Shown: positions 3,259-63,658 of the stretch, in pieces
Layout: every line of letters starts with the position of its first letter
How positions within the stretch are numbered: the stretch's first letter is position 1
From: Psychroserpens damuponensis
GTDB taxonomy: Bacteria > Bacteroidota > Bacteroidia > Flavobacteriales > Flavobacteriaceae
Reading direction: 5' to 3'
NCBI RefSeq assembly: GCF_000826655.1
Contig: NZ_JXJO01000003.1
Coordinates: 62,001-126,000 of the forward strand
Length of the DNA: 64,000 nucleotides
Notes under the pieces: model-generated
The model's input: only the letters and a program-made list of their open reading frames with translations
Database searches by the model: none
What the model was told of the DNA's origin: nothing
Translations under genes and position numbers: made by a program

Positions 3259-3328
3259 TCTTTTTTCTTCGGAAAATTAGAACCCTAGGCAAACTCTAAC
3301 AACTAATATGACTAAAACTGACTTATAA

Positions 3329-4588
3329 ATGAAGGATTTATTTGCAAAGATATATAAGGACAAAGGACCATTAGGAAAATGGGCTTCTCAAGCAGAAGGC
3401 TATTTTGTGTTTCCTAAGCTAGAAGGAGAAATTTCTAATAGAATGAAATTTCAAGGAAAAGAAGTTATTACTTGGAGTATTAATGACTATTTAGGATTAG
3501 CTAATCATCCTGAAGTTCGTAAAGTAGATGCAGAAGCTGCTGCTCAATATGGATCCGCTTATCCAATGGGAGCACGTATGATGTCTGGTCACACTGAACT
3601 TCACGAACAACTGCAAAACGAACTTGCTGAGTTTGTAAATAAAGAAGCAGCATATTTGCTAAACTTTGGTTATCAAGGTATGGTGTCTACAGTAGATGCT
3701 TTAGTATCTAAAGATGACATTATTGTATATGATGTAGATGCTCATGCTTGTATTATTGATGGTGTGCGTTTACACATGGGTAAACGTTTTACTTATAAGC
3801 ATAATGATGTTGAGAGTTTAGAGAAAAACTTAGAGCGTGCTACTAAAATGGCAGAGCAAACTGGAGGAGGAATTCTTGTAATTTCTGAAGGTGTCTTTGG
3901 AATGAGAGGTGAGCAAGGTCGTTTAAAAGAAATTGTAGCGCTTAAAAAGAAATATAATTTTAGATTATTTGTTGATGATGCTCACGGTTTTGGAACCTTA
4001 GGAAAAACAGGAGCAGGAGCAGGTGAAGAGCAAGGCGTACAAGATGATATCGATGTGTATTTTGCAACATTTGCGAAGTCTCTAGCAAGTACTGGAGCTT
4101 TTATTGCAGCAGATCAAGAAATTATCGATTATTTGAAATATAATTTGCGTTCGCAAATGTTTGCTAAATCGTTACAAATGCAACTTGTTGTAGGTGCATT
4201 AAAACGATTAGATATGTTGCGTACAATGCCAGAATTGAAAAAGAATTTATGGACTATTGTCGATGCTTTACAATCTGGATTAAAAGAACGTGGTTTTGAT
4301 ATTGGTACTACGCAAAGTTGTGTAACGCCTGTATATCTTAAAGGTAGTATTCCTGAAGCGATGGCTTTAGTTCGTGATTTGCGTGAAAACTATGGCATTT
4401 TCTGTTCTATCGTTGTGTATCCAGTAATACCAAAAGGATTAATTTTATTAAGAATGATTCCTACAGCAACACACACATTACAAGATGTGTCTGATACACT
4501 TGATGCATTTGATGCTATTAGAGAGCGTTTAGTAAACGGAACTTACAAACGCTTATCTGCTTCAGTTATGGCTGCAATGGGTGAATAG
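3329..4588 (+). CDS. capB: Alpha-oxoamine synthase, probable cysteate fatty acyltransferase (CapB/SulA-like)
   Basis: Fold-type I PLP enzyme of the serine palmitoyltransferase / 8-amino-7-oxononanoate synthase group, 419 residues. Visible hallmarks are GARMMSGHTELHEQLQ near 81-96 (substrate/PLP entrance), DDAHGFGTLG (216-225; PLP-nitrogen Asp and stacking His region) and the Schiff-base lysine K250 in TFAKSLASTG. Known family members condense an amino acid with an acyl thioester with loss of CO2. In gliding Bacteroidetes the closest type uses cysteate and gives 3-ketocapnine, the precursor of sulfonolipids. The neighbouring cysteine-synthase-like gene favours cysteate over serine. Glycine (2-amino-3-ketobutyrate CoA ligase) and serine (sphingolipid) specificity remain possible, since these cannot be told apart by eye. 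Confidence 0.65.
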   Translation: MKDLFAKIYKDKGPLGKWASQAEGYFVFPKLEGEISNRMKFQGKEVITWSINDYLGLANHPEVRKVDAEAAAQYGSAYPMGARMMSGHTELHEQLQNELAEFVNKEAAYLLNFGYQGMVSTVDALVSKDDIIVYDVDAHACIIDGVRLHMGKRFTYKHNDVESLEKNLERATKMAEQTGGGILVISEGVFGMRGEQGRLKEIVALKKKYNFRLFVDDAHGFGTLGKTGAGAGEEQGVQDDIDVYFATFAKSLASTGAFIAADQEIIDYLKYNLRSQMFAKSLQMQLVVGALKRLDMLRTMPELKKNLWTIVDALQSGLKERGFDIGTTQSCVTPVYLKGSIPEAMALVRDLRENYGIFCSIVVYPVIPKGLILLRMIPTATHTLQDVSDTLDAFDAIRERLVNGTYKRLSASVMAAMGE

Positions 4589-4612
4589 TATAAAACTTTT
4601 ATAAAGATAAAA

Positions 4613-4647: not shown

Positions 4648-5934
4648 TTAAGATGCCTTTCTCTTTTCTGTAGTTTTATAAAGGTATTCTATTATAAAAC
4701 AAAATATAACAATAGCCAATGCTACTATAACTCCTGTTTGGTTAGATTCAAATTGTTTTATAATCAACACTATTAATGATAACATGCAAAGAATACAACC
4801 AATAAGAGGTATCCATCGTTTCGCATTGATGTGTTTACTTAATTTAAATCCGACATAATTTACAACAGCAAAAATGATTAAAAATCCTACGCTACCTGCT
4901 GTAGAAATACTCTCTAATTTTAAGAAATTGACAAGAATTAGGGTTGCCATTGCTGTAATGATTAGACCTATAGGTTGATTCCACAATTTACCGGTTAGCT
5001 CATGAGGTAGTTCATCATCTTCAGCAATTTGAAAACTAACGCGACTTCCGCCGTATAACGATGCATTTATTGCAGAAAACGTTGAAATTAAAGCCGCAAT
5101 TGTCATCACTGTAAAGCCTAGTTGGCCTAACATTGGTTTAGCGGCTTCGGCTAAAACATATTCTTCAGCCGATTTTATAGTTTCAAAAGATAATGAGCCT
5201 ACAGTTACAATAGAAATTATGATGTAAAGTAAAATTACAAATCCTACAGAGTAGTAATATGCTTTTGGAATATTTACTTTTGGGTTTATTATGTTTGATC
5301 CAGCATTAGCAATGAGCTCAAATCCTTCATAGGCTACAAAAATCACCATCCCTGCAGTTAGAATTTGGAGCGGAGTTTCCCAATTTTTAGCCGATAGTTG
5401 TGGTAAGTTAGCATTTCCGAAGAGACCATAAATACCTATTACAATAAAAGCTAATAGAATAATAAGCTTAATAGCTACGGAATAAGACTCTATCGTAGAT
5501 ACTACTTTTACGCTATAATAATTGATAATAGTTGCGACAATTACGATAGCACTAGAGTATATATGTGTATCGATATTGGTATTACCAGTTAGTTCTAAAA
5601 GATTTGGTGCATAGGATCCAAATGCCGAAGCATACAGTGATAGCATAATGATATAGCTAATCCATAATAAATTATTTATAGAACCGCTAAATATGGTTTT
5701 TCCAAACCCTTCATTTATATATTTTACGGTACCTCCATTGTCAGGAAAACTAAGTGTAAGTTTTACATAGGAGTAAGATGTGATTAAAGCCACAATGCCA
5801 GCAAAGAGAAAGGCCAATGGAGTTGCGCCTTTTGATAAGGATACAGCAAGGCCAAGCACAGCAAATATGCCGCCTCCAACCATGCCACCAATACCTATAG
5901 AAATTGCACTTTTTAAACTTATTTGGTCACTCAT
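4648..5934 (-). CDS. APC-superfamily amino-acid permease
   Basis: Integral membrane protein of 428 residues with about 12 hydrophobic segments. The N-terminus carries the glycine-rich first-helix motif of APC transporters (ISIGIGGMVGGGIF at about 11-24), and a second typical stretch lies near VFVAYEGFELIANAGSNI, the TM6 substrate-binding region with its conserved Glu. It would import an amino acid by proton or sodium coupling at the inner membrane; the substrate cannot be told. It is 22 bases downstream of the GNAT gene and is probably cotranscribed with it. It converges on the capB-like gene. Confidence 0.8.
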   Translation of the reverse strand: MSDQISLKSAISIGIGGMVGGGIFAVLGLAVSLSKGATPLAFLFAGIVALITSYSYVKLTLSFPDNGGTVKYINEGFGKTIFSGSINNLLWISYIIMLSLYASAFGSYAPNLLELTGNTNIDTHIYSSAIVIVATIINYYSVKVVSTIESYSVAIKLIILLAFIVIGIYGLFGNANLPQLSAKNWETPLQILTAGMVIFVAYEGFELIANAGSNIINPKVNIPKAYYYSVGFVILLYIIISIVTVGSLSFETIKSAEEYVLAEAAKPMLGQLGFTVMTIAALISTFSAINASLYGGSRVSFQIAEDDELPHELTGKLWNQPIGLIITAMATLILVNFLKLESISTAGSVGFLIIFAVVNYVGFKLSKHINAKRWIPLIGCILCMLSLIVLIIKQFESNQTGVIVALAIVIFCFIIEYLYKTTEKRKAS

Positions 5935-7084: not shown

Positions 7085-8074
7085 TTAAAGGCTTCCGTCG
7101 TCATCAAAATCATTTTCTCTTTTGTTTTTGCCTTTTTTCTTTTTTGGTTTCCGTTTGTCGGCATCTTTTCTAGAATTACCATTGTCTGTTTCTTTATCTA
7201 CATGAAAATCGAAGCGGTAAGACATTCCGAAGTTAACACCAAAAACAGAAGGTGTATCTTTACTATTAAAGGTTAAAGCAGTATCTAATTGAAAATCTTT
7301 ACTCCATAAATAGCCTCCTCCAAAACGGAATAGGTTATCTGCATAAAAATCACTTTTAATGCCTTGTGTTTCTGCAAATATTACCCATTGCGGATTGAAA
7401 GAATGGGTCAAAGTTATGATGTATTGAAACTCTGAGTAGTCTGTACCAATTCTATCCATTAATAGGTTAGTAACTAAAACCCAACCACCTGAAAAATTAT
7501 TTTGTGAAGCCACCATTATTTTAGGGCTAAAACCTTCAATTCCTGGTCCTGTATATGGGTTGTTTTTGGTGTCAAAATTGGCGCCAGCATATACGGCAAC
7601 TGCAGGAATTAGTGATTTCCATTTAAATGAATGGTTAGCATGATAGCTATATAAATTTGGTTTTTCTTCTTCTTCACCATCTTTTAATTTATAAGGATCA
7701 TAAACTAAATATTTTGCTCCAACGGTCAATTGCTTAAAATTTGAGCGCTTGTCTTCATAAGAAATTGTAGAGCGATTATCAGTAAAGGTGTCGTTTTGGT
7801 AGGTTCCTTCTATATTAAGTTCTAGTTCTTCAAAAAGTAAACCATAGCGTGCTGTAAAATCAACACCAAATCCAGAAACTTCATATTTTAATGGAGTATG
7901 CTCTTCATTAACAATATAAGGTCCTACTTCTACTTGTGCCACATTTGTACCTACAGAGAAAGCACTTTTAGAGACACCTGGTCTGTTAGAATTAATAACA
8001 TCAGTATATTGGGCAAACACAATCTGTACAAAGAGACAAGTAAAAAATATGAGTGCTTTTTTGATAGGTTTCAT
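7085..8074 (-). CDS. Outer-membrane transporter-like protein (MetA-pathway phenol-degradation type barrel) with basic tail
   Basis: 329 residues. A signal peptide ends at VFAQ (about residue 21) and is followed by TDVINSNRPG, the opening typical of the putative MetA-pathway phenol-degradation / transporter barrel family. Alternating aromatic strands run through the middle and end at VNFGMSYRFDFHV. The last 45 residues form a charged tail rich in K, R and D (for example RKPKKKKGKNKR), which is unusual after a barrel. Substrate unknown. It sits 9 bases upstream of the GNAT gene, so a GNAT-permease operon could start here. Family placement is by general resemblance. Confidence 0.6.
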   Translation of the reverse strand: MKPIKKALIFFTCLFVQIVFAQYTDVINSNRPGVSKSAFSVGTNVAQVEVGPYIVNEEHTPLKYEVSGFGVDFTARYGLLFEELELNIEGTYQNDTFTDNRSTISYEDKRSNFKQLTVGAKYLVYDPYKLKDGEEEEKPNLYSYHANHSFKWKSLIPAVAVYAGANFDTKNNPYTGPGIEGFSPKIMVASQNNFSGGWVLVTNLLMDRIGTDYSEFQYIITLTHSFNPQWVIFAETQGIKSDFYADNLFRFGGGYLWSKDFQLDTALTFNSKDTPSVFGVNFGMSYRFDFHVDKETDNGNSRKDADKRKPKKKKGKNKRENDFDDDGSL

Positions 8075-8458: not shown

Positions 8459-8592
8459 TTCCTTTTTATAGTGTTTTATATAGTTCATTTTTTCTTCGGA
8501 AATTTTAATGACTCACACTTTGTAGCCTTTTTAAACCTTATCTTTTAAAAAAAATAGCTACTTTTCAGCAACAATCTATTTAATAGCGTTTC

Positions 8593-11515: not shown

Positions 11516-12793
11516 ATGAAAAAACAAACCCTAATCATCACATACTATTGGCCACCAGCTGGAGGTCCAGGCGTTCAACGATGGTTGAAGTTTGTGAAAT
11601 ACTTGCCTGAGTTTGGCATTGAACCCATTGTCTATTGCCCTGAAAATCCAAGCTACCCAATTGTAGATGAGAGTTTATTAAATGAAGTTTCTTCGGAAAT
11701 TAAAATTTTAAAACAACCTATTAGCGAGCCTTACCGTTTTGCAAATTTATTATCAAAAAAAGATTCTAAACAGATTAGCTCTGGCGTAATTCCGAAGAAA
11801 AAAAAGCAAAGCGTCGTGCAACGTTTACTATTGTATGTTAGAGGTAATTTTTTTATACCTGATGCGCGAAAGGGTTGGGTAAAACCGTCTGTGCAATTTC
11901 TTGCGAAATATATTCAAGAAAATAATATTGAAACCATAATTACAACGGGTCCACCTCATAGTTTACATCTTATTGGTTTGCAATTAAAAGCGCAACTAGG
12001 CGTAAAGTGGATTGCCGATTTTAGAGATCCTTGGACAACCATTGGGTATCACAAAGCGTTGAAGTTATCTCCATCTTCAGCAGAAAAACATAAAACATTA
12101 GAAGCTCAAGCACTGCAAACTGCAGACGAAATTATTGTTACTAGTGAGAACACAAAAAAAGAATTTTTGTCTAAAACAAAACAGCCTGTAACGGTTATCA
12201 CTAATGGTTATGATGCTCATAAGATTGAACGTCCAGAAAAAGATAAAAAATTCACGTTAGCACATATTGGCTCTTTATTAAGTGAAAGAAACCCAAAGCA
12301 ATTATGGGCTTCAATAAAAGAACTTATTGATGAGAATGAAAATTTCCGAAGTGAATTTGAACTCAAATTAATAGGTGTTGTGAGTGAAGATGTGTTGCAT
12401 ACGCTTAAAGCATTTGGATTAGAATCCCACATCAATTCTGTTGGTTATGTAACGCATAAGGACGCTATAAAAGCGCAAATGGCATCTCGTGTGTTGTTGA
12501 TGGTTGAGATAGATTCTGATGATACTAAAGTGATTATTCCAGGAAAATTGTTTGAATACATGGCTTCGGGTACTCCAATTATTGCTGTTGGTCCAACCGA
12601 CTCTGATGTAGAAACCATTTTAAAATCTACAAATACTGGTCAGTATTTTTATTACAGTGACAAGGAACAGATGAAATCACAAATTTTGTCGTATTTTGAT
12701 GCTTATAAATCCAACACTTTAACAGTAAATGCAATAGGGTTGGAGCAATATAGCAGAAAATCACTAACCAAAGTATTGTCTAGAATTATCTAA
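11516..12793 (+). CDS. GT4-type glycosyltransferase
   Basis: 425 residues, two Rossmann halves. The N-terminus TYYWPPAGGPGVQRW (9-23) is the acceptor-side glycine loop of GT4 enzymes from Bacteroidetes. KWIADFRDPW lies near 163. The donor-side motif is KLFEYMASGTPIIAVGPTDSDVE, with the conserved E-x7-E-like arrangement. Cytoplasmic, using a nucleotide sugar. The stop codon overlaps the next start (TAATG), so the flippase is translationally coupled. Donor and acceptor cannot be told. Confidence 0.85.
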   Translation: MKKQTLIITYYWPPAGGPGVQRWLKFVKYLPEFGIEPIVYCPENPSYPIVDESLLNEVSSEIKILKQPISEPYRFANLLSKKDSKQISSGVIPKKKKQSVVQRLLLYVRGNFFIPDARKGWVKPSVQFLAKYIQENNIETIITTGPPHSLHLIGLQLKAQLGVKWIADFRDPWTTIGYHKALKLSPSSAEKHKTLEAQALQTADEIIVTSENTKKEFLSKTKQPVTVITNGYDAHKIERPEKDKKFTLAHIGSLLSERNPKQLWASIKELIDENENFRSEFELKLIGVVSEDVLHTLKAFGLESHINSVGYVTHKDAIKAQMASRVLLMVEIDSDDTKVIIPGKLFEYMASGTPIIAVGPTDSDVETILKSTNTGQYFYYSDKEQMKSQILSYFDAYKSNTLTVNAIGLEQYSRKSLTKVLSRII

Positions 12794-14250
12794 TGGGAAT
12801 TGTACTTAATCAATCCTTAAAAAACACAATAACCACCTATCTTGGGTTTGGTTTAGGAGCAATTAATGCACTGTTTTTATATACCAATTTTATAAGTGAT
12901 GAATATTACGGTCTTGTAGCATACATCCTTTCTGCAGCCAATATTATGATGCCATTAATGGCTTTTGGAGCGCATAATACAATTGTAAAATTCTACTCAA
13001 CTTTTAAAACCAAAAATGCACTCAATAGTTTTTTAACATTGATGCTTTTTTTACCAATAGTGTTGTCAATTCCGTTGGCATTTGTTGGTTATGTGGCTTA
13101 TGATACGATTGCAGATGCTTTAACAACAAAAAACGAAATCGTTAGAGATTACCTATGGTATATTTTTCTTACTGCCTTATCTATGGCGTATTTTGAAGTG
13201 TTCTATGCTTGGATGAAGGTACAAATGCAAACTGTATTTGGTAATTTTATGAAAGAAATATTTCATCGTGTAGGAGCCATGTTATTGTTATTTGCAATCT
13301 ACTTTAAATTTATAGATATAGATCAATTTATGTTGGGTATAGTAGGTGTGTATATATTAAGAGCGCTCATTATGATGTGTTATGCATTTAGCACAAGACT
13401 TCCTGTATTTAGATTTAATAGAATTGATAAATTAAGTGCTATTTTAAAATACTCATCACTAATTATTATTGCAGGTTCTATTGCAACAATCATCTTAGAT
13501 CTTGATAAATTTATGCTTAATAATTATATAGATATCGAGAAGGTTGCTTACTACAGTGTCGCTGTTTTTATTGCGACGGTAATTGCGGTTCCGCAACGCG
13601 CAATGCATCAAATATTATTACCGCTCACAGCTCAGTTTTTGAATGAAAACAACAAGGAAGGGCTTAAAAATTTGTATCAAAGAAGTTCACTAACACTTTA
13701 TATCATTAGCGGATTAATTTTTCTGTTAATCGTTTTAAATATCAATCAACTGTATGTCATTATTCCTTCGGAATTTAGTGGTGGCTTAGTTGTTGTTTTT
13801 CTCATAAGTATTGCTAAGCTTTATGACAACCTCTTGGGAAATAACAACGCGATTTTATTTAATAGCGATTATTATAGAATGGTATTGGTTTTTGGTGTTA
13901 TTTTGGCTGTATTGGCAATTATTCTTAATTTGATTTTAATTCCTAGATTTGGTATTAATGGTGCAGGATTGGCCACATTTATTGCCATTGTGGTTTACAA
14001 TACGATTAAAATCATATTTGTGAAGCAAAAATTTAAAATGCTTCCTTTTACTTCGGAAACTTTAAAAATCACAATCCTTTTGATACTATTGGTAGTTGGG
14101 TTCTATTTTTGGGAATTTCCGTTTAATGCCTATATGAATATTGCTCTAAAATCTTTGGTAATTAGTATCGTCTATGGCTTGTTAATTTTTAAATTAAATG
14201 TGTCTGTAGATATTTCCGAAGCTATTAGAAAATATTTGAAACTTAAATGA
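12793..14250 (+). CDS. Wzx-type polysaccharide flippase (MOP superfamily)
   Basis: 485 residues with about 14 hydrophobic helices and few charged residues in the helices. It begins LKNTITTYLGFGLGAINALF, the usual first helix of Wzx/RfbX flippases. These proteins move lipid-linked oligosaccharides across the inner membrane. The start overlaps the stop of the glycosyltransferase by one base. It is the last gene of the YfhO-GT4-flippase operon. Confidence 0.85.
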   Translation: MGIVLNQSLKNTITTYLGFGLGAINALFLYTNFISDEYYGLVAYILSAANIMMPLMAFGAHNTIVKFYSTFKTKNALNSFLTLMLFLPIVLSIPLAFVGYVAYDTIADALTTKNEIVRDYLWYIFLTALSMAYFEVFYAWMKVQMQTVFGNFMKEIFHRVGAMLLLFAIYFKFIDIDQFMLGIVGVYILRALIMMCYAFSTRLPVFRFNRIDKLSAILKYSSLIIIAGSIATIILDLDKFMLNNYIDIEKVAYYSVAVFIATVIAVPQRAMHQILLPLTAQFLNENNKEGLKNLYQRSSLTLYIISGLIFLLIVLNINQLYVIIPSEFSGGLVVVFLISIAKLYDNLLGNNNAILFNSDYYRMVLVFGVILAVLAIILNLILIPRFGINGAGLATFIAIVVYNTIKIIFVKQKFKMLPFTSETLKITILLILLVVGFYFWEFPFNAYMNIALKSLVISIVYGLLIFKLNVSVDISEAIRKYLKLK

Positions 14251-17284: not shown

Positions 17285-17444
17285 ATCATAAATAGTTAAT
17301 AATCAATTTGTTGTTGTTTGTCAAATAACTGCCTTTATCGGTATGATATTATTTTATTTAGGGTTATTTATTTTTTCTTCGGAAATATCTCATACACAAA
17401 ACCATCATTTTTATTACATTTATGGCAACAACCAATCTATAGTA

Positions 17445-23047: not shown

Positions 23048-23704
23048 TTACTTTTTCTTCGCATAGTAATCTTTCAATACAGTGGATCTTCCAATGGTTT
23101 TAGTAATGACATCTTTTTCTAAATCCCAACTTCTGGCAGGCGAGTATTCTCGTCCGTACCAAATGATTTGAAGGTGTAAATCATTCCATAATTCCTTCGG
23201 AAATAGGCGTTTTGCATCTTTTTCGGTCTGTACCACATTTTTTCCGTTAGTGAGATTCCAACGGTACATTAATCGATGAATATGTGTATCTACAGGAAAA
23301 GCAGGAATTCCAAAAGCTTGCGATAGCACAACAGCAGCTGTTTTATGTCCAACGGCTGGTAACTCCTCTAAATCGGCATAATTTTGAGGTACTTCTCCAT
23401 TATGTTTATCAATTAAAATATGTGATAAGCCATGTATACCTTTACTTTTCATTGGAGATAACCCTACAGGTTTGATAATCTCTCTAATCTCTTCTATAGA
23501 TAATTTAATCATATCATAAGGATTATCTGCTTTTGCAAATAGGAGAGGAGTGATTTTATTAACGCGAACATCTGTGCTTTGGGCAGACATTAATACTGCA
23601 ATTAATAAGGTGTAAGGGTCTTTATGATCTAACGGAATAGGAATCGTTGGATATAATTCTTTTAACGTATTAATAACAAAATCTACCTTTTCTTGCTTAG
23701 TCAT
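23048..23704 (-). CDS. nth: Endonuclease III-type DNA glycosylase lacking the Fe-S cluster
   Basis: 218 residues from ATG 23704; a longer frame upstream overlaps the divergent bcp gene and is not used. HhH-GPD fold: the helix-hairpin-helix LPAVGHKTAAVVLSQAFG carries the catalytic Lys K121, and VDTHIHRL carries the catalytic Asp D139, equivalent to E. coli K120 and D138. It excises oxidised pyrimidines and nicks abasic sites in base excision repair. The C-terminal C-x6-C-x2-C-x5-C loop of E. coli Nth is absent: that region reads REYSPARSWDLEKDVITKTIGR, and the protein appears to have no cysteine at all. The active site is intact. Confidence 0.88.
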   Translation of the reverse strand: MTKQEKVDFVINTLKELYPTIPIPLDHKDPYTLLIAVLMSAQSTDVRVNKITPLLFAKADNPYDMIKLSIEEIREIIKPVGLSPMKSKGIHGLSHILIDKHNGEVPQNYADLEELPAVGHKTAAVVLSQAFGIPAFPVDTHIHRLMYRWNLTNGKNVVQTEKDAKRLFPKELWNDLHLQIIWYGREYSPARSWDLEKDVITKTIGRSTVLKDYYAKKK

Positions 23705-24195: not shown

Positions 24196-24252
24196 TTTCA
24201 AAGCTTAGACGATTTCCGAAGTAACAACATTTAGAAGTAATGCTTTAAAATA

Positions 24253-41859: not shown

Positions 41860-42456
41860 ATGCCTTATAAAAATTTTGAAGAATATAACATGCAAGTTAC
41901 AGATGACGTCAAGCAACGTTATAAGCAAATAATTGAAGAGTTAGGAGAAGATACTCAACGAGAAGGCTTGTTAAAAACACCTGAACGTGCCTCAAAAGCT
42001 ATGCAGTTTTTAACGCAAGGCTACCACCAAAATGCTGCTGAGATACTTAAAGGAGCCATGTTTAAAGAATCATATAATGATATGGTTATAGTAAAAGATA
42101 TTGAACTGTATTCACTTTGTGAGCATCATATTCTTCCTTTCTTCGGAAAAGCGCACATTGCATATATACCTAATGGACATATAGTTGGTTTAAGTAAATT
42201 ACCACGAATCGTAGATGTTTTTGCTCGAAGACTTCAAGTACAAGAACGCTTAACACATCAAATTTTAGATTGTATAAATGATACACTAAAACCTGCAGGA
42301 GTGGCAGTCGTGATAGAAGCTTCTCACATGTGTATGATGATGCGAGGTGTACAAAAGCAGAACTCGGTAACTACAACCTCAGGATTTAGAGGTGCTTTTG
42401 AAAACATAGAAACTAGAACCGAATTTCTAAACCTTATTAACGCAAAGTTGTCTTAA
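41860..42456 (+). CDS. folE: GTP cyclohydrolase I
   Basis: 198 residues. It converts GTP to 7,8-dihydroneopterin triphosphate, the first step of folate (and pterin) synthesis. The zinc ligands C87 and H90 in LCEHHILPF and C158 in [11 protein letters not shown] are all present. The ending RTEFLNLI is normal. The start [10 protein letters not shown] is as usual for flavobacterial FolE. A CTTCGGAA octamer encodes part of PFFGKAH. It is followed 54 bases later by a small membrane protein gene, then a terminator. Confidence 0.97.
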
Positions 42457-42510: not shown

Positions 42511-42807
42511 ATGACATTAGAAAACACATCCAAAACAAAAAAACTAGCTTTAAGTATATTATTTGATGCTTTAGGTTATGTTTCATTTATTTTTCCACCA
42601 TTTGATTTTGTTTGGGCACCAGCATCGGCTTGGTTAATGACCAAGCTCTATAAAGGGAAAAAGGGGAAAATAGCTGCAGCAATTTCGTTTGTAGAAGAAG
42701 CCTTACCATTTTTAGATATTGTACCTACATTTACGCTCATGTGGTTATACACGTTTGTTTTTTCTTCGGAAAAAGGAAAAGGCGAGACCGTTATCGATCT
42801 TAATTAA
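42511..42807 (+). CDS. Small membrane protein, unknown function
   Basis: 98 residues. Two or three membrane segments: ALSILFDALGYVSFIFPPFDFVWAPASAWL (about 13-42) and FLDIVPTFTLMWLYTFVF (68-85), with a basic loop KLYKGKKGKIAAA between. The C-terminus is polar (SSEKGKGETVIDLN). The pattern is well conserved in flavobacteria in my memory but has no known role. Probably cotranscribed with folE. Confidence 0.7.
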   Translation: MTLENTSKTKKLALSILFDALGYVSFIFPPFDFVWAPASAWLMTKLYKGKKGKIAAAISFVEEALPFLDIVPTFTLMWLYTFVFSSEKGKGETVIDLN

Positions 42808-43466: not shown

Positions 43467-45866
43467 TTAATAATTTAATTTTAATTGAAGCATTATGTTT
43501 CGTCCAAGATCATCGGCAAAATATCTTAATCGATTTAAATAATTTCTATAAGAGGTGTTTAATACGTTTTGTACACTTAGACCAACATTTAAATTTGTTT
43601 TGTGATTTAAAGCAAATGTGATATCACTATTAAAATGTAATAAGTGATATGTTGGAGGAGGTGTACTAATATCTACTAAAACAGTTTCATTTGTAGTTGG
43701 TATAAACGCTTCAAAATTGTTATTAGGAAAGTCATTTTGACGTAATACTAATTCACTTTCTATAGACGCGTTAAAATTGAGCCACTTTTTATTTGAATAC
43801 TGAAAGCTATTTACTGTTTTGTTAGAAGGCATATCTATTAATGGCCTATTTAATTCTAAGTTTCGTCCTCTTAAAACCGAAGACCTATTTTTAAATGACC
43901 AATCTTTTGAAATGTTATAATCAAGAGAAAAGTCTAAACCAATTAACGATGCATTTGTTTGTTTATAGCTCCATACAGGAAAGGCGCCTCTTAAGGTTTG
44001 CTCTGTACCAGTTGGTTCTATATAAATAAAATCTGTTATATGGTTGTAGAACGTTTCTATGTTAACTATCAACTTTTCCGAAGAAAAAAGATAAGAAAGC
44101 GCAAAACGATTTGAGGTTTCTTGATCAATCCTTAAATCTCCCAATTCAATTCTTGCAGCAGAGTGATGTAAACCGTCGCTAAATAACTCTGACGGATTTG
44201 GCGCGCGATTAGATAAACTATAATTAAACAAAATACTATGTTCATCATTTATCTTATACGTTGTACCTGCAGATGCAGATATATTATGATACTTAAATTT
44301 TGGATTGACTAGTAGTTGTGTGCCTAAATCGTCTATAACTAAATCTGCAAAATCTACGTCATAACCTCGTTCTTCCCATCGTGATGTTAGGTAAAATTTT
44401 TGAGCATCATAATAATTAAAATCATAACGTACTCCAAAATCTAATCGTAAATTATCATTGATTGTAATATCTGTGATGGCATAAATACCAAAATCATATT
44501 TATCATAATCTGGGATAAGTCGACGAACACCAGTATTAGGATTAGCAAAATTATTTTGATAATTGGCACTTAATCCAATTTCATAAGTGTTACCGTGATT
44601 GCTATCTAATTTTAAGGCTGTTTTTATACTATGTGTTTTTAATTTTAGATCTATGGCAGCTTTATCTCTGTCATCACCAACACGAATGTCATACTCAAAT
44701 CGTTGATTATTTTGAAAATCATACTGAATTTCTAATCGTCCAAATTTTTTGAAACGTTTGTAAAATTCTGCTTTAAAAATTTGATGAGTTACATCTTGTC
44801 TTGGCGCATTGATATCATAACTAAAATCTTCGACTATTGATGGTTGTTGACTATTAATTGCATTTACCAAATCTTCAATATTACCAATATGTGATGATCT
44901 TAAAATGGCAATTTCATTATTTAGATAACTATAAAAGACATTAAATCCTTGCTCAAATGTTTTAAATCCAGCATGTATTGAAAAGCCATTTGAATTTAAA
45001 CCAGTATTAGTAAGGCTGTAATTTGGAGCTTTAAAATCTCCATATTTTTTTAAAGTTCCTTGCCCTGAAACATACCATCCTTCAGTATACGTTTTAGTGA
45101 GCTTGCTAGATAAACTAAATCCTCTTCCATTATTTTGAGTTGTTGCAATGGTTTTTCCAAATAGTGAGTCTTTTAAAAATACACGTTGCGGACTCATTAC
45201 GACTACTCCTCCTAGTGCATCACCTCCAAAAGCTAGAGCGCCAGAGCCTTTAATAACAGAGATCGTTTCTGCAGAATTGATATCAATATTTGGTGCATGT
45301 TCAATTCCCCATTCTTGATCTTGAAGTCTTACACCATTAGTCATCACAATAATTCTACTACTATGTAAACCATTAATAACTGGTTTTACTATTGTATTAC
45401 CAGTATTTAACGAGTTAACACCACTTATTTGCTTTAAAGCATCGCCTAAACTACCAGAGCTGTAAGTTTCTAAATCTTTAGATTTAAGCACAGTTTCTTG
45501 GCTAGAATGCGTTTGTGTTTTTATAGCAGAACCCTTTACATTAACTAGTTCTAGTTCTTCAACATGATGCTCTAAAGTAATATTATATACTGTATTACCT
45601 TTAACTTCTATGTTTAAGATTTTAGTTTCACAAGCAATGTGAGAGACTTTTATGTTATAATTTCCGTCGCAGAGTTTTGAGAATTTAAAATCTCCATTTA
45701 AATCTGTAACAGCATAAACATCTAGTGATTCAATATACAAGGACGCTCCAATAATTTTGCTACCGTCATGAAAATCATCTATTGTACCACTGAGTTTAGA
45801 ATTGCAATTTTGAGCCATTACTACAGCAGAAAAGCATATAGCGCATAGCGTTACAAAAAACTTCAT
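43467..45866 (-). CDS. TonB-dependent receptor, ZnuD-like (putative zinc/metal uptake)
   Basis: 799 residues. The signal peptide ends VMAQ (19), then a carboxypeptidase-like regulatory domain (about 22-105), the plug (about 118-235; SLGDALKQISGVNSLNTGNTIVKPVINGL, VIKGSGALAFGGDALGGVV) and a 22-strand-type barrel ending LQLKLNY. The extracellular stretch PSELFSDGLHHSAARIELGDLRIDQETSN is close in wording to ZnuD-type zinc receptors (ELY-x-DGPHHAT-x-x-x-EIG). An upstream His-rich small protein and a downstream acidic lipoprotein fit metal uptake. The ligand is not proven; copper or a metal chelate is possible. Confidence 0.75.
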   Translation of the reverse strand: MKFFVTLCAICFSAVVMAQNCNSKLSGTIDDFHDGSKIIGASLYIESLDVYAVTDLNGDFKFSKLCDGNYNIKVSHIACETKILNIEVKGNTVYNITLEHHVEELELVNVKGSAIKTQTHSSQETVLKSKDLETYSSGSLGDALKQISGVNSLNTGNTIVKPVINGLHSSRIIVMTNGVRLQDQEWGIEHAPNIDINSAETISVIKGSGALAFGGDALGGVVVMSPQRVFLKDSLFGKTIATTQNNGRGFSLSSKLTKTYTEGWYVSGQGTLKKYGDFKAPNYSLTNTGLNSNGFSIHAGFKTFEQGFNVFYSYLNNEIAILRSSHIGNIEDLVNAINSQQPSIVEDFSYDINAPRQDVTHQIFKAEFYKRFKKFGRLEIQYDFQNNQRFEYDIRVGDDRDKAAIDLKLKTHSIKTALKLDSNHGNTYEIGLSANYQNNFANPNTGVRRLIPDYDKYDFGIYAITDITINDNLRLDFGVRYDFNYYDAQKFYLTSRWEERGYDVDFADLVIDDLGTQLLVNPKFKYHNISASAGTTYKINDEHSILFNYSLSNRAPNPSELFSDGLHHSAARIELGDLRIDQETSNRFALSYLFSSEKLIVNIETFYNHITDFIYIEPTGTEQTLRGAFPVWSYKQTNASLIGLDFSLDYNISKDWSFKNRSSVLRGRNLELNRPLIDMPSNKTVNSFQYSNKKWLNFNASIESELVLRQNDFPNNNFEAFIPTTNETVLVDISTPPPTYHLLHFNSDITFALNHKTNLNVGLSVQNVLNTSYRNYLNRLRYFADDLGRNIMLQLKLNY

Positions 45867-47391: not shown

Positions 47392-48552
47392 TCATGTCGT
47401 CTGTTTTTTAAATGTAAGAATAAATGTTGAGCCTTCACCCAAAGCGCTTTCTACCTTTATTGTGCCGCCTATGGTCTCCATTTGAGTTTTAGTAATATAC
47501 AATCCTACACCACGAGAATCGTCTCTACTAGTACCATGAAAGGTTTGATAAATTTCAAAAAGTTGATTTTTATATTTATTGGTATCAATCCCTATACCAT
47601 TATCTGAAATTAATATTTTAAGTTCGTCTTTAGTATGTAAAGATTGTAACATAATTTTAGAATTACGATCATCTGCTCTGTACTTGATGCCATTTGAAAT
47701 CAAATTGTAAAGTATACTTTCTAAATAAGAACTATTTACGTTTATAATATCATTTTTTCTAATTGAATTGTAAATGGCAATATTATTATGCGCAATATCC
47801 ATTTTTAAACTATGAATAACTTTTTCTGCACAATTGTATATACTTACACGCTCATTGAGTTCTTTAGCATTTGATTTAGACTTAATACTAATGATATCAT
47901 CTAAGTCTACAATTGTTGTTGAGAGTGCTCCGGAAATCGTCTTGAGATGATCAATAAGTTCATGTTTTTCTTCTTCGGAAACTGCTTCGTCATAAAATTC
48001 TAGAATATTTTTAAAATTTCCAATATGTGTTTTTAAATTATGAGATACAATATGGGTGAAATTATGTAAGCGTTCATTTTGACTTGTGATTAGCTGAAGA
48101 TAACGTTCAGACTGTACTTCTTTTTTCTTTCTGTAAGTGATATCGGTATGTGTACCAATAATACGTGTTGGTTTGCCTTGAGCATTTTTTTCAATAATTT
48201 TACCTTTATCTAAAATCCATTTGTATTGGCCATCACGACAAAGGATGCGATGTTCGTTTCTATAGGTATCTAACGATCCATTTACATGTGCATTAAAATC
48301 ATTGAAATAGGTTTCAGAATCTTCAGGATGTACTCTACGATCCCATTCTGTTACAGAGTTGGATAGCTCGTGTTCTTCAAAACCAAGAAGCATTTTAGAC
48401 TCTTTAGAATAATACACTTCATTTTTAATGATGTCATAATCCCATAGACCAACATTAGTGTTTTCTAATGCTATTTGCCATCTCTTATCATTAATAGAAT
48501 CTTGATTCTCAATTTTAGGTTGAGGATTTGGTTCTTTTTTTTTCCAAAACAT
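47392..48552 (-). CDS. PAS-domain sensor histidine kinase
   Basis: 386 residues, cytoplasmic. PAS (PAS_3 type) at about 25-140: VGLWDYDIIKNEVYYSKESKMLLGF, WDRRVHPEDSETYF, RILCRDGQYKWILDKGKII, IIGTHTDIT. The H box is NFTHIVSHNLKTHIGN with H171, a variant with N-L-K where most kinases have E-L-R. The HATPase part has NLISNGIKYR, DNGIGID and SRGVGLYITK. It has a close paralogue directly downstream. No response regulator is adjacent. Confidence 0.92.
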   Translation of the reverse strand: MFWKKKEPNPQPKIENQDSINDKRWQIALENTNVGLWDYDIIKNEVYYSKESKMLLGFEEHELSNSVTEWDRRVHPEDSETYFNDFNAHVNGSLDTYRNEHRILCRDGQYKWILDKGKIIEKNAQGKPTRIIGTHTDITYRKKKEVQSERYLQLITSQNERLHNFTHIVSHNLKTHIGNFKNILEFYDEAVSEEEKHELIDHLKTISGALSTTIVDLDDIISIKSKSNAKELNERVSIYNCAEKVIHSLKMDIAHNNIAIYNSIRKNDIINVNSSYLESILYNLISNGIKYRADDRNSKIMLQSLHTKDELKILISDNGIGIDTNKYKNQLFEIYQTFHGTSRDDSRGVGLYITKTQMETIGGTIKVESALGEGSTFILTFKKQTT

Positions 48553-48814
48553 GCTGAGGCTTTTTTTTTATTTGGACACTTTTTTTTTAAAAACGTCACT
48601 CAAAAATATATCATTTTTTGTTTATACAATACGATATCATTGATTATGAGATTGTTGTTTTTTAAAGGTAATCCATGCTATATTTAAAACTGTTTTGTTA
48701 ATGTATTTGTATCGAGATAGTTGGCGTGTTTTGTGATAGGTGTTTTTAGTTTTATTTAGGATGCGATTGAGGTGTAGTTTTAACATTTCCGAAGAAAAAA
48801 AACTTAGAAATTAT

Positions 48815-56077: not shown

Positions 56078-57454
56078 TTATAAGTGTATGACTTCATCAT
56101 AAGCAGCAGCAACAGCTTCCATTACCGCTTCACTCATAGTTGGGTGAGGGTGAATTGCTTTTAATACTTCATGGCCAGTTGTTTCTAGTTTACGTCCTAA
56201 AACGGCTTCTGCAATCATGTCAGTTACACCAGCTCCAATCATATGGCAGCCTAACCATTCGCCATATTTAGCATCAAAAATAACTTTTACAAAGCCGTCT
56301 TTAGCTCCAGAAGCACTTGCCTTACCCGAAGCTGAGAATGGAAATTTACCAACTTTAATATCAATACCTTGCTCTTTTGCTTGTTTTTCAGTTAAGCCAA
56401 CACTTGCAATTTCTGGAGAACAATAGGTGCAGCCTGGCACATTTCCGTAGTCAATAGCTTCAACATGCATACCAGCGATTTTTTCTACACATAAAATACC
56501 TTCAGCAGAAGCAACGTGTGCTAAAGCTTGGCCTGGAGTAATATCACCGATAGCGTAGTAGCCAGGAATGTTTGTTTGGTAGTAATCGTTAACTAATATT
56601 TTATCTCTATCTACAGCGATACCAACATCTTCTAATCCAATGTTTTCAATATTAGATTTGATACCTACAGCAGATAATACGATATCTGCTTCAAGAATTT
56701 CTTCACCTTTTTTAGTTTTCACTGTCGCTTTTACACCTTTTCCTGAGGTGTCAACATGTGTCACTTCCGCAGATGTCATGACTTTAATTCCGCTTTTCTT
56801 AAATGAGCGTTCTAATTGTTTAGAAACCTCTTCATCTTCAACAGGAACAATATTTGGTAAATATTCAACAACGGTTACCTCAGTCCCAATTGAATTGTAG
56901 AAATATGCAAATTCAACACCTATTGCACCAGAACCAACAACAATTAATTTCTTTGGTTGTTCTTCTAGAGACATGGCTTGTCTATAACCAATTACTTTTT
57001 TACCATCTTGAGGTAAGCTAGGCAACTCACGAGAACGAGCTCCTGTGGCAATAATAATATGGTCTGCAGTGTATTCTTTACCGTCTACTTCAACTTTTTT
57101 ACCCGTTTTTAAGGTTCCGAAGCCATCAATAACATCAATTTTGTTTTTCTTCATTAAAAACTTGACACCATTACTCATACCATTTGCAACGCCTCGACTA
57201 CGTTTTACAATGGCATTAAAATCTTTGTCATATTCTTTAACAGAAAGCCCATAATCTTCTGCATGTTTTAAATAGTCAAAAACTTGAGCAGATTTTAATA
57301 AAGCTTTTGTTGGGATACAGCCCCAATTTAAACAAATACCACCTAAATTTTCTTTTTCTATAACTGCGGTTTTTAATCCTAATTGTGAAGCTCTAATTGC
57401 TGCAACGTAGCCTCCAGGACCACTACCAAGTACTATAATATCGTATTTACTCAT
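56078..57454 (-). CDS. lpdA: Dihydrolipoyl dehydrogenase (E3)
   Basis: 458 residues from ATG 57454 (MSKYD); 15 extra upstream residues in frame are not part of the family. FAD-binding GSGPGGYVAAIRASQ (10-24), redox disulfide C41/C46 in GGICLNWGCIPTK, NAD-binding GSGAIGVEFAYFY, second FAD contact AIGDITPGQALAHVA, active-site HPHPTMSEA near the end. It reoxidises lipoyl groups of the 2-oxoacid dehydrogenase complexes or the glycine cleavage system. No E1/E2 gene is in the window. Confidence 0.97.
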   Translation of the reverse strand: MSKYDIIVLGSGPGGYVAAIRASQLGLKTAVIEKENLGGICLNWGCIPTKALLKSAQVFDYLKHAEDYGLSVKEYDKDFNAIVKRSRGVANGMSNGVKFLMKKNKIDVIDGFGTLKTGKKVEVDGKEYTADHIIIATGARSRELPSLPQDGKKVIGYRQAMSLEEQPKKLIVVGSGAIGVEFAYFYNSIGTEVTVVEYLPNIVPVEDEEVSKQLERSFKKSGIKVMTSAEVTHVDTSGKGVKATVKTKKGEEILEADIVLSAVGIKSNIENIGLEDVGIAVDRDKILVNDYYQTNIPGYYAIGDITPGQALAHVASAEGILCVEKIAGMHVEAIDYGNVPGCTYCSPEIASVGLTEKQAKEQGIDIKVGKFPFSASGKASASGAKDGFVKVIFDAKYGEWLGCHMIGAGVTDMIAEAVLGRKLETTGHEVLKAIHPHPTMSEAVMEAVAAAYDEVIHL

Positions 57455-60455: not shown

Positions 60456-60462
60456 CAAAGCT

Positions 60463-61728: not shown

Positions 61729-61747
61729 TTTTATTCCAATACAATAC

Positions 61748-63658
61748 ATGGCAGAAGTAATAGCACACAGTCTTTTTACAGATTTTGATATCTCCCTTTT
61801 TAAATCAGGAAAACATTATCGTTTATACGAGAAATTTGGTTCGCACATAACAACGGTAGAAGGAGTTGAAGGTGTTTATTTTGCTGTTTGGGCTCCAAGT
61901 GCAAAAATGGTATCTGTAATTGGAGATTTTAATTTTTGGACAGAAAGTGAGCATAAACTTAATGTACGTTGGGATTCTAGCGGAATATGGGAAGGCTTCA
62001 TTCCTGGAGTTGGGAAAGGCACACAATATAAATACAAAATTCTTAGTAGTAATAACGATATAACAACCGAAAAAGCAGATCCTTACGCTAGACGAGCAGA
62101 GCACAATCCCAAAACAGCATCTATTGTTTGGGACGATACCTATAAATGGAAAGATGCAAAATGGATGAAAATGCGAAAAAAGCACAATGCTCTAAACGCA
62201 CCATACTCGGTTTATGAAGTCCATTTAGGATCTTGGAAAAAACAAATTGAAGAGAATCGATTTATGTCATATGTTGAGCTAGCAGACGATTTAGTGAGCT
62301 ATGTTAAAGACATGAATTTTACTCACGTTGAGTTAATGCCAATAATGGAGTTTCCTTATGACCCTTCTTGGGGTTATCAAGTGACAGGTTATTTTGCACC
62401 AACATCACGTTTTGGATATCCTGAAGAATTTAAATTATTAGTTGATAAATTACACCAAAACGATATTGGGATCATTCTAGATTGGGTACCGTCACATTTC
62501 CCAGAAGATGCTCACGGACTCGGTTTCTTTGATGGATCTGCGCTTTATGAGCATCCAGATAAACGAAAAGGATACCACCAAGATTGGAAGAGTTTAATTT
62601 TTAACTACGGAAGAAACGAAGTCAAGTCCTTTTTAATAAGTAATGCCATTTTTTGGTTAGATCAATTCCATGTAGATGGTTTTAGAGTAGACGCAGTCGC
62701 TTCCATGTTATTTTTAGATTATAGTAGAGAAGATGGTGAATGGGAACCAAATATGTATGGCGGACGAGAGAATCTAGAAGCCATGTCATTTTTGCGAGAA
62801 TTTAACGAAGCCGTATATTCAGCTTTTCCAGATGTTCAAACCATTGCCGAAGAATCTACCGCATTCCCAATGGTCTCAAAACCAACCTTTCTTGGAGGTT
62901 TAGGTTTTGGCATGAAATGGATGATGGGTTGGATGCACGATACATTAGAGTATTTTTCTAAAGAACCTATCTATAGAAAATACCATCAAAATGACCTTAC
63001 ATTTTCTATGACCTATACATTCACAGAGAATTTCATGTTACCATTAAGTCACGATGAAGTCGTGTATGGTAAAAAATCAATTTTGGGTAGAATGCCAGGC
63101 GATGAATGGCAACGTTTTGCAAATTTGAGATTATTATACAGCTATATGTTTACACATCCTGGAACTAATGTTTTATTTCAAGGTGGTGAATTTGGTCAAA
63201 GTTCAGAGTGGAATTTTGAACAAAGTTTAGATTGGCATTTGCTAAAATACGCACCACATAAAGGTATAAAAGAGTTGTACAAAGATTTAAATACATTTTA
63301 TAAATCGCAACCTGCATTATATCAAAAGCAATTTTCTTCGGAAGGTTTTGAATGGATCGACTATAATGATCACGAAAACTCAATAATAACCTTCATTAGA
63401 AAAGGAGATAAGCCAAAAGATGATATCATCGTCGTTTGCAACATGACACCTAATCCCAGTAACAATTACCGCATCGGAATTCCGAAGAAAGGAAAATTAA
63501 AAGAAGTGTTCAATAGTGATTTAAAAAAATACTTTGGAACAGGAGAGTACAAAAATAAAGCTTTAACATCTAAAGCCGTAGCGCATCATTTTAGAGATAA
63601 TTCTGTAGAGATAAATGTGCCACCATTAGGTATGATTGCTTTTAAGTATGGAAAATGA
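61748..63658 (+). CDS. glgB: 1,4-alpha-glucan branching enzyme (GH13)
   Basis: 636 residues, the usual short bacterial form. N-terminal CBM48 (FAVWAPSAKMVSVIGDFNFW), then the GH13 barrel: DWVPSHFP (region I), DGFRVDAVAS with the nucleophile Asp (region II), IAEEST with the acid/base Glu (region III) and PLSHDEVVYGK (region IV). It makes alpha-1,6 branches. It is 19 bases after glgC, so cotranscribed. Two CTTCGGAA octamers are in the last 330 bases. Confidence 0.97.
   Translation: MAEVIAHSLFTDFDISLFKSGKHYRLYEKFGSHITTVEGVEGVYFAVWAPSAKMVSVIGDFNFWTESEHKLNVRWDSSGIWEGFIPGVGKGTQYKYKILSSNNDITTEKADPYARRAEHNPKTASIVWDDTYKWKDAKWMKMRKKHNALNAPYSVYEVHLGSWKKQIEENRFMSYVELADDLVSYVKDMNFTHVELMPIMEFPYDPSWGYQVTGYFAPTSRFGYPEEFKLLVDKLHQNDIGIILDWVPSHFPEDAHGLGFFDGSALYEHPDKRKGYHQDWKSLIFNYGRNEVKSFLISNAIFWLDQFHVDGFRVDAVASMLFLDYSREDGEWEPNMYGGRENLEAMSFLREFNEAVYSAFPDVQTIAEESTAFPMVSKPTFLGGLGFGMKWMMGWMHDTLEYFSKEPIYRKYHQNDLTFSMTYTFTENFMLPLSHDEVVYGKKSILGRMPGDEWQRFANLRLLYSYMFTHPGTNVLFQGGEFGQSSEWNFEQSLDWHLLKYAPHKGIKELYKDLNTFYKSQPALYQKQFSSEGFEWIDYNDHENSIITFIRKGDKPKDDIIVVCNMTPNPSNNYRIGIPKKGKLKEVFNSDLKKYFGTGEYKNKALTSKAVAHHFRDNSVEINVPPLGMIAFKYGK

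What the first reader, a model, noticed from the sequence alone, without database searches (positions are those of the whole stretch)
3267..63487. Over-represented octamer CTTCGGAA: candidate DNA uptake, Chi-like or other genome-wide signal
Seen directly: 24 copies, 12 per orientation, about one per 2.7 kb. All 24 occurrences of the heptamer TTCGGAA are preceded by C, so the unit is at least 8 bases; 19 extend to CTTCGGAAA, and about half are preceded by T runs (TTTTTCTTCGGAAA). At about one third GC my rough estimate is one chance copy on both strands, so the excess is around twenty-fold. Copies encode unrelated peptides (PFFGK, SSEI, FRSE, IPKK, IPSEF), so selection is on DNA. Balanced orientation fits an uptake sequence better than a polar Chi/KOPS signal; T-rich extension next to a core also resembles known uptake sequences. 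I do not know of a described uptake sequence in flavobacteria.
Basis: partly seen in the sequence, partly recalled or inferred. Interest (0 to 1): 0.78.

Follow-up and report, generated by a model that had tools for sequence, protein, structure and literature searches.

The report
Probable DNA-uptake tag in Psychroserpens
A short DNA word, CTTCGGAA with a run of T before it, is scattered about 1,500 times through this marine bacterium's genome, far above chance, and looks like the 'self' tag that some bacteria use to choose which free DNA to take up; that use has not been tested here.

Summary
The genome, a Psychroserpens species, holds 741 + 779, against 175 for the reversed word. The unit is larger: a T-rich tract (-12 to -1), core CTNCGGAA, A at +8, and a C-enriched 3' side to about +25. 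One-mismatch cores sit at chance. Synonymous codon shuffling removes the signal (116 observed, 6.2 expected). Where four motif-rich relatives keep the amino acids they keep the DNA word about four times as often as controls. There is no strand polarity and no copy in a 38-kb polysaccharide island. Copy number varies from 278 to 2174 within the genus and is patchy across the family. Best reading, inferred: an uptake sequence read at the cell surface during natural transformation; the genome has ComEC and an outer-membrane gene pair like one required in Riemerella. Uptake is untested, and attempts to link the motif to these genes were null or inconclusive. Chi, KOPS and hairpin readings are disfavoured.

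The parts
3267..3274 (+). CTTCGGAA copy, intergenic
5415..5422 (-). CTTCGGAA copy
7225..7232 (-). CTTCGGAA copy; same 8 bases kept in 4 of 5 relatives
8494..8501 (+). CTTCGGAA copy, intergenic
11691..11698 (+). CTTCGGAA copy
11790..11797 (-). CTTCGGAA copy; kept in 4 of 5 relatives
12344..12351 (-). CTTCGGAA copy
13766..13773 (+). CTTCGGAA copy
14051..14058 (+). CTTCGGAA copy; kept in 3 of 5 relatives
14214..14221 (-). CTTCGGAA copy
17377..17384 (+). CTTCGGAA copy
23195..23202 (+). CTTCGGAA copy
24214..24221 (-). CTTCGGAA copy, intergenic
27840..27847 (-). CTTCGGAA copy
29502..29509 (-). CTTCGGAA copy
35934..35941 (-). CTTCGGAA copy
36213..36220 (+). CTTCGGAA copy
38759..38766 (-). CTTCGGAA copy; kept in 3 of 4 aligned relatives
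42141..42148 (+). CTTCGGAA copy
42764..42771 (+). CTTCGGAA copy; kept in 3 of 4 aligned relatives
44076..44083 (-). CTTCGGAA copy
47973..47980 (+). CTTCGGAA copy
48787..48794 (-). CTTCGGAA copy, intergenic
57115..57122 (-). CTTCGGAA copy
63336..63343 (+). CTTCGGAA copy
63480..63487 (-). CTTCGGAA copy
1315..1322 (+). variant core CTACGGAA
5475..5482 (+). variant core CTACGGAA
9738..9745 (+). variant core CTACGGAA
10821..10828 (+). variant core CTACGGAA
19574..19581 (+). variant core CTGCGGAA
21835..21842 (-). variant core CTACGGAA
25658..25665 (-). variant core CTACGGAA
28888..28895 (-). variant core CTACGGAA
29152..29159 (-). variant core CTACGGAA
30111..30118 (+). variant core CTGCGGAA
31156..31163 (+). 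variant core CTGCGGAA
35862..35869 (+). variant core CTACGGAA
47928..47935 (+). variant core CTCCGGAA
54029..54036 (+). variant core CTACGGAA
56443..56450 (-). variant core CTACGGAA
56765..56772 (-). variant core CTGCGGAA
62605..62612 (+). variant core CTACGGAA

Best explanation
The motif is an uptake sequence. A DNA-binding component of the transformation machinery at the cell surface prefers double-stranded DNA that carries a T-rich tract followed by CTNCGGAA(A) and a C-enriched, T-poor 3' flank. DNA from the own species is therefore taken up and recombined more often, so copies that arise by mutation are spread by recombination and accumulate in the exchanged core genome over long times. 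Shown: a strict, non-polar, DNA-level genome-wide motif with a footprint of about 38 bp, kept at synonymous sites, variable between species and absent from one exchangeable island. Inferred: that the reader of the motif is the transformation apparatus. The apparatus is likely the pilus-free one described for Riemerella (ComEC, DprA, ComF, a TonB-receptor-like outer-membrane protein with a DUF5689 partner and others), because the genome encodes ComEC and an adjacent pair with the same domains. Which protein reads the motif is not known.
For: Genome-wide excess on both strands, 741/779 and 1085/1089 in the single-contig genome G008; no preference for the G-rich strand, 129 vs 116 of 245 sites, 46-59%. 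Strict consensus: CTNCGGAA 193 found against 13.3 expected, its 21 one-mismatch classes 405 against 410 (own sample). Cores that vary at position 3 carry the same T tract, T at -3 in 68-70% of sites against 74% for the main core; of the 18 other one-mismatch cores with ten or more copies, 16 have 19-43%. Flank signal remains after matching gene and reading phase. Synonymous shuffles: own 116 vs 6.2, G008 261 vs 15.7. With identical amino acids the motif DNA is kept in 7/9, 9/10, 5/9 and 6/7 against 13-23% of control 8-mers in four relatives. Enriched in many but not all species of the genus and of the family. No copy in a 38-kb O-antigen-type island where 14.7 are expected; the two poorest of 24 stretches of G008, 2 copies each, carry restriction/defence and metal-resistance genes. 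ComEC and the adjacent TonB-receptor-like + DUF5689 pair are present, and PMC8459023 itself lists homologues in Psychroserpens (passages). R. columbina prefers its own DNA in a competition experiment (PMC7965970, section 16 read).
Against: No uptake was measured. Most Flavobacteriaceae have these genes without the motif: ComEC in 266 of 299 and DUF5689 in 271 of 299 genomes, whereas by my hand tally only about 37 of the 299 have at least twice the control count. Of 33 genomes without ComEC, 2 are in that set (one only 68% complete, one with 26 copies), against about 35 of 266 with ComEC; among genomes at least 90% complete it is 0 of 11 without ComEC; neither is significant. The type IV pilus platform domain does not track the motif, 10 of 31 high and 8 of 35 low genomes. 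In the outer-membrane protein tree the motif label is clustered across the family, but the own genome sits in the branch otherwise held by motif-poor or weakly enriched genomes, and within the genus receptor type does not separate high from low. Spacing is random rather than regular, and the non-coding excess is small, 0.62 vs 0.46 per kb. In raw numbers perfect cores do not outnumber one-mismatch cores. The R. columbina paper listed only A/T-rich words.
Confidence: 0.62

Rival explanations
1. Chi-like recombination hotspot: the motif is read as single strand by an AddAB or RecBCD type helicase-nuclease and switches it from degradation to repair.
For: Octamer length, genome-wide excess and strict consensus also fit a Chi site; a missing motif in an exchangeable island fits too.
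Against: No strand preference, 129 vs 116, whereas Chi in E. coli is mostly on the leading strand (recalled). A 12-base T tract and a 3' flank belong to the element. Copy number differs about 8-fold between species of one genus. The helicase-nuclease genes were not searched.
Confidence: 0.12
2. Binding site of an abundant intracellular architectural or segregation protein, a non-polar chromosome organiser.
For: Non-polar, randomly spaced, with a T tract and a footprint of about 3.5 helical turns.
Against: One-mismatch sites are at chance, while sites of intracellular regulatory proteins are usually relaxed, as argued in PMC1626085 (passages seen). Absent from a 38-kb island.
Confidence: 0.12
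3. Replication- or FtsK-oriented polar signal such as KOPS.
For: Length and abundance alone.
Against: No orientation bias along the chromosome of G008.
Confidence: 0.02
4. RNA element: a C(UUCG)G tetraloop hairpin, for example in terminators.
For: The core holds CTTCGG and is flanked by T on the left and A on the right.
Against: Copies lie in genes in both orientations. Variants CTACGGAA and CTGCGGAA, which break the tetraloop, are enriched 8-fold and carry the same T tract. Flanking bases do not covary beyond shuffles in own and G008; of 24 informative flank pairs over four genomes one, -3/+8 in G034, exceeded shuffles (2 of 300 as high).
Confidence: 0.02
5. By-product of codon or dinucleotide bias, or of DNA modification.
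For: Coding copies rarely lie in the two frames that need CGG or CGA arginine codons (5 of 117 own, 22 of 264 G008).
Against: Within-gene synonymous shuffles and third-order Markov both fall about 17-20-fold short. Restriction-modification would deplete, not enrich (general knowledge). Methylation was not testable.
Confidence: 0.03

Closest known systems
Pasteurellaceae uptake signal sequences (USS; AAGTGCGGT and ACAAGCGGT types)
   Same: Short strict core plus A/T-rich flanking tracts, both strands equally, many copies in genes, shared by relatives (PMC1626085, abstract and passages seen).
   Different: Core CTNCGGAA is unrelated; the T tract lies 5' of the core, not 3'; density 0.39 per kb here and 0.57 per kb in G008 against close to one per kb; other phylum; no pilus is known in the Riemerella uptake system; uptake not shown.
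Neisseriaceae DNA uptake sequences (DUS dialects)
   Same: Non-polar repeated word that varies within a family and acts as a label for gene exchange (PMC3630211, abstract and passages seen; non-polarity from PMC1626085).
   Different: There dialects replace one another; in the motif-poor genomes sampled here I found no clear replacing word, with one weak candidate. Reader ComP is a type IV pilin (recalled for the fold); the pilus platform domain is absent from 50 of 68 genomes tested, G008 included.
Riemerella natural transformation system
   Same: Same family in the papers' taxonomy; ComEC, and a PF13620 outer-membrane protein followed by a DUF5689 protein, are in the own genome. R. columbina prefers own DNA (PMC7965970 section 16).
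   Different: No uptake motif was identified there; only A/T-rich words were listed.
E. coli Chi (GCTGGTGG)
   Same: Over-represented octamer, about a thousand copies (recalled).
   Different: Chi is strand-polar (recalled); this motif is not.
HIP1 of cyanobacteria
   Same: Very abundant octamer of unknown role (recalled).
   Different: HIP1 is a palindrome (recalled); this is asymmetric with asymmetric flanks.

Membership tests
Uptake sequences (USS/DUS) | DNA with the motif is preferentially taken up by competent cells | not testable with these tools
   Needs a bench assay.
Uptake sequences (USS/DUS) | Strongly over-represented word with very many copies, near one per kb | tested here: met
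   Top 8-mer of own and G008 samples; 1520 copies, 0.39 per kb, own; 2174, 0.57 per kb, G008. Density is lower than the one per kb of the type cases.
Uptake sequences (USS/DUS) | No orientation bias | tested here: met
   741/779; 1085/1089; 129/116 relative to GC skew.
Uptake sequences (USS/DUS) | Unusually strict consensus | tested here: met
   Perfect 193 vs 13.3 expected, one-mismatch 405 vs 410.1 (own). But in raw counts perfect copies do not outnumber one-mismatch copies, as they do for the 9-bp USS.
Uptake sequences (USS/DUS) | Flanking A/T-rich tract (USS type) | tested here: met
   T at -12..-1 and A at +8 over a phase-matched background, 546 sites.
Uptake sequences (USS/DUS) | Preference for non-coding DNA and closely spaced opposite pairs | tested here: inconclusive
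   Weak: 0.62 vs 0.46 per kb, p 0.03; convergent 30 vs divergent 14 pairs under 300 bp, p 0.02, but 4 vs 3 under 60 bp.
Uptake sequences (USS/DUS) | Spacing more regular than random | tested here: inconclusive
   CV of 493 gaps 0.98, i.e. random; but gaps were measured inside stretches of at most 20 kb in most cases, which cuts long gaps.
Uptake sequences (USS/DUS) | Shared by relatives, in parallel with transformation genes | tested here: inconclusive
   Shared by relatives; parallel with genes not shown.
Chi sites | Strand polarity with replication | tested here: not met
   129 vs 116.
Chi sites | Recognition by AddAB/RecBCD | not testable with these tools
   Biochemistry needed.
KOPS | Orientation towards the terminus | tested here: not met
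UUCG hairpin or terminator element | Complementary, covarying flanks | tested here: not met
   No excess over shuffles in own or G008; one of 24 informative pairs over four genomes exceeded them; loop-breaking variants are also enriched.
HIP1-type palindrome | Palindromic octamer | tested here: not met
   CTTCGGAA is not a palindrome; flanks asymmetric.

The most novel reading that the evidence does not exclude
A sequence-specific DNA-uptake system in Bacteroidota that needs no type IV pilus: an outer-membrane TonB-receptor-like protein and its DUF5689 partner, or another envelope component, reads an element of about 38 bp (T tract, CTNCGGAA, C-enriched flank). Related motif preferences, gained and lost by species, would act as a partial gene-exchange label across many Flavobacteriaceae.
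Probability: 0.35. Interest if true: 0.88.

Novelty: new variant of a known kind. Interest (0 to 1): 0.76.

Why it matters
In 2006 uptake sequences were known in Pasteurellaceae and Neisseriaceae only (PMC1626085, passages seen). My searches of the held library found no described one in Bacteroidota (two Riemerella papers came up, without a motif). A third, unrelated lineage with a core-plus-tract element and with apparently pilus-free uptake genes would show that sequence-biased uptake evolved more than once. It would give the missing recognition signal for the family's transformation system, predict which species exchange DNA, and provide a tag for getting DNA into hard-to-transform marine flavobacteria.

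Tried and rejected
Hairpin or terminator element: flanks do not covary in own or G008, and variants that break the loop carry the same T tract. Polar signals (Chi, KOPS): no strand preference. Codon or peptide cause: synonymous shuffles. Type IV pilus as the correlate: 10 of 31 high vs 8 of 35 low genomes; two further genomes of the 68, G003 and G014, were left out of both groups and lack the domain. ComEC and DUF5689 as correlates: almost universal, underpowered. One suggestive case is the near-complete genome G052, which lacks both genes and has the lowest count of the seven species of its genus (91, against 227-897); other genomes that lack both exist in the 299 (for example G026, G120, G208) and are motif-poor too. 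Receptor type as the cause: clustered with the motif over 43 chosen genomes (9 changes, shuffled mean 13.6, as low in 3 of 500), but relatedness alone can do that, and within the genus the three genomes of the one type have motif/control ratios 1.6, 2.0 and 8.7, inside the range of the other twenty (1.1-18.4). A replacing dialect in motif-poor genomes: over 10 genomes of 40 kb each and pooled sets no word came near the strength of CTTCGGAA; apparent hits in G192, G142 and part of those in G045 are local repeats, while CTAACGAC in G045 (10 vs 0.7) is dispersed on both strands and remains a weak candidate. 40 kb each would miss a sparse word. Of the ten samples labelled high, G006 is in fact only about 2-fold enriched, and in G275 (8 vs 2.0) and G121 (10 vs 1.9) CTTCGGAA was not the top word. 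A search of papers for the bare octamer returned only unrelated hits among the 20 listed of 852.
Full report
WHAT WAS CHECKED. The window is G000:C30:62001-126000 of a 3.95-Mb, 106-contig genome. One window protein finds Psychroserpens as nearest named relatives, for example 91 percent identity to an uncultured Psychroserpens and 89 percent to P. burtonensis DSM 12212. CTTCGGAA occurs 26 times in the window, 12 on + and 14 on -, against 1.04 in shuffles, and 1520 times in the genome against 175 for the reversed word. It is the most enriched 8-mer of a 322-kb sample, 135 vs 6.7.

ANATOMY. I pooled 546 copies from own-genome, G008, G002, G018, G021, G013 and G007 stretches and compared each flank position with random positions of the same gene in the same reading phase, or of other non-coding DNA. 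T is enriched from -12 to -1 (least at -11 and -10), most at -3 (74 vs 35 percent), -2, -1 and -6. A is enriched at +8 (65 vs 33 percent). Downstream, C is enriched at +15, +17, +19, +21 and +25, A at +21 and +22, and T depleted at +15, +16, +21 and +22. The third core position is free: CTACGGAA and CTGCGGAA are enriched about 8-fold, CTCCGGAA 3.5-fold, and these carry the same T tract (T at -3 in 68-70 percent). Of the other 21 one-mismatch cores, three have fewer than ten copies; CCTCGGAA and CGTCGGAA (15 and 10 copies, hardly enriched) also have T at -3 in 67 and 80 percent; the remaining 16 have 19-43 percent. With the core written CTNCGGAA, perfect copies are 193 vs 13.3 expected and one-mismatch copies 405 vs 410 (own); G008 gives 465 vs 33 and 760 vs 780. 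The consensus is thus unusually strict. Gaps between copies follow a random distribution (CV 0.98 over 493 gaps). Convergent neighbours within 300 bp outnumber divergent ones, 30 to 14.

IT ACTS AS DNA. Copies are mostly inside genes and in both orientations; four of the six frames are well used and the two that need CGG or CGA arginine codons are rare. Shuffling synonymous codons within each gene leaves on average 6.2 of 116 (own), 15.7 of 261 (G008), 9.7 of 79 (G299) and 7.8 of 65 (G034). In syntenic 80-kb pieces of five relatives the 8 bases are conserved in 8/20, 10/20, 6/17 and 6/18 aligned sites in the motif-rich G002, G018, G021 and G013 and in 1/9 in the motif-poor G003, against 6-16 percent for other CG-containing 8-mers with four G+C. 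Restricting to sites whose amino acids are identical gives 7/9, 9/10, 5/9, 6/7 and 1/1 against 20, 23, 13, 19 and 11 percent. These comparisons share one reference and are not independent.

DISTRIBUTION. In the 23 held genomes of the genus, own included, the count runs from 278 to 2174, with controls of 118 to 376. Among 299 genomes of the family, about 37 have at least twice the control count (my hand tally), up to 2678 in G299 of another genus; most of the rest are near or below control. Samples of G299 and G034 (37 and 44 percent GC) also have CTTCGGAA as the top 8-mer, but the tolerated variants differ: in G299 CTTCAGAA (4.2-fold, without the T tract) rather than CTACGGAA (2.3-fold) stands out, and the T tract of the main core is weaker, nearly absent in G034. 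Whether these are one system is therefore open. One search looked at 246 genomes of the order, 206 of them outside the family; there I saw no strong excess, the largest ratios among genomes with over 90 copies being just under three-fold. Ten motif-poor genomes sampled at 40 kb each showed no comparable replacing word; CTAACGAC in G045, 10 vs 0.7 and dispersed, is a weak candidate.

NOT POLAR, SLOW TO ACCUMULATE. In 24 stretches along the single-contig genome G008 the counts do not follow GC skew: 129 copies on the G-rich strand and 116 on the other over 20 stretches; the four stretches near position 1 were left out, and one stretch with skew near zero (L053) was counted with its neighbours. 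A 38-kb gap in the own genome, C1:161746-199848, has no copy where 14.7 are expected. Of ten proteins tested there, five are group-1 glycosyltransferases, and single ones match an ABC exporter ATPase (with a sub-threshold Wzt C-terminal match), an MBOAT acyltransferase, an ATP-grasp protein and, below cut-off, an exostosin-type glycosyltransferase; one had no match. It is a surface-polysaccharide locus, of a kind often exchanged between strains (general knowledge). In G008 the two poorest stretches carry a type I restriction system with reverse-transcriptase and SIR2-like genes, and copper/heavy-metal genes beside a glutamate-synthase-like and a permease gene. This fits a motif that builds up slowly in resident DNA, but would fit Chi as well.

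MACHINERY. In Riemerella anatipestifer transformation requires ComEC, DprA, ComF, RecA, a helix-hairpin-helix protein, a PF13620 outer-membrane protein with its adjacent DUF5689 partner, and a DUF1343 protein, and no pilus homologue was found (PMC8459023, abstract, section 19 and passages). The paper reports homologues of its four new genes in Psychroserpens (passages). The own genome has ComEC and, on contig C11, a 926-aa TonB-receptor-like protein with PF13620 directly before a 493-aa DUF5689 protein. I did not search the other genes here. R. columbina took up its own DNA in preference to R. anatipestifer or E. coli DNA in a competition experiment (PMC7965970, section 16); its authors' word counts listed only A/T-rich words.

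TESTS OF THE LINK, MOSTLY NEGATIVE. The pilus platform domain PF00482 is in 10 of 31 motif-rich and 8 of 35 motif-poor genomes. ComEC is in 266 of 299 and DUF5689 in 271 of 299 genomes, so neither explains patchiness. Of 33 genomes without ComEC (13 of them inferred by difference, as the list was cut) two are in the motif-rich set, one of them only 68 percent complete and one with 26 copies; this is not distinguishable from about 35 of 266. One suggestive case: G052, near-complete, lacks both genes and is the motif-poorest of seven species in its genus. A tree of the outer-membrane protein from 43 chosen genomes groups motif-rich ones more than shuffles do (9 changes vs 13.6, as low in 3 of 500). 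However, the own protein belongs to a branch with motif-poor and weakly enriched genomes: it is 90 percent identical to that of G006 and 86 percent to G003, but 58-64 percent to those of the other twenty congeners (G014 in pieces of 54-68 percent), although a window protein is 88-91 percent identical to G017, G002 and G018 and 77 percent to G006 and G003. The gene has therefore probably moved between lineages.

JUDGEMENT. Strictness, lack of polarity, a T-tract flank, synonymous conservation, density and rapid change between relatives match the published description of uptake sequences (PMC1626085, passages) better than any rival I weighed. Regular spacing and strong non-coding preference are not seen. 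The functional feature that defines the class, preferred uptake, is untested. I put uptake at 0.62.

Noticed in passing
L245:3631-7873 (G000:C11): TonB-receptor-like and DUF5689 gene pair of the own genome is of a type shared with G003, G006 and motif-poor genera, unlike its nearest congeners: probable horizontal replacement (for DUF5689 bit scores).
   Followed up: partly
G000:C1:161746-199848 (L009, L010): 38-kb motif-free surface-polysaccharide island; the two 20-kb stretches have 29-31 percent GC.
   Followed up: partly
L046 and L054 (G008): Motif-poor stretches with a reverse transcriptase, SIR2-like and type I restriction genes, and with multicopper oxidase and heavy-metal ATPase genes.
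   Followed up: partly
G052: Near-complete genome lacking both ComEC and DUF5689, lowest motif count of its genus.
   Followed up: partly
L196, L197 (G045): CTAACGAC, 10 copies against 0.7 in 40 kb, dispersed on both strands in a genome poor in CTTCGGAA: possible other dialect.
   Followed up: partly
L001:2090-7078: Repeats at multiples of about 249 bp, rich in GGCTAGCC; the stretch also holds all 17 GAGCCAGCAC of the sample; probably one repeat-protein gene.
   Followed up: no
L025-L031, L216-L217, L220-L221, L224-L225, L232-L233: Other genera with CTTCGGAA excess also over-use TTCAGAA/TTCTGAA or its extensions, an odd-length palindrome-like word.
   Followed up: no
motif-poor genome samples: GATTTTGA/TCAAAATC is about three-fold enriched in motif-poor genomes, 64 vs 21 and 57 vs 19; unexplained.
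   Followed up: no
2080-4588: Cysteate synthase (NCBIfam match over cut-off) next to a serine-palmitoyltransferase-like protein (below cut-off), probably sulfonolipid synthesis (pathway recalled).
   Followed up: no
59034-63658: Glycogen synthase and branching enzyme genes, the latter with two convergent motif copies 144 bases apart.
   Followed up: no
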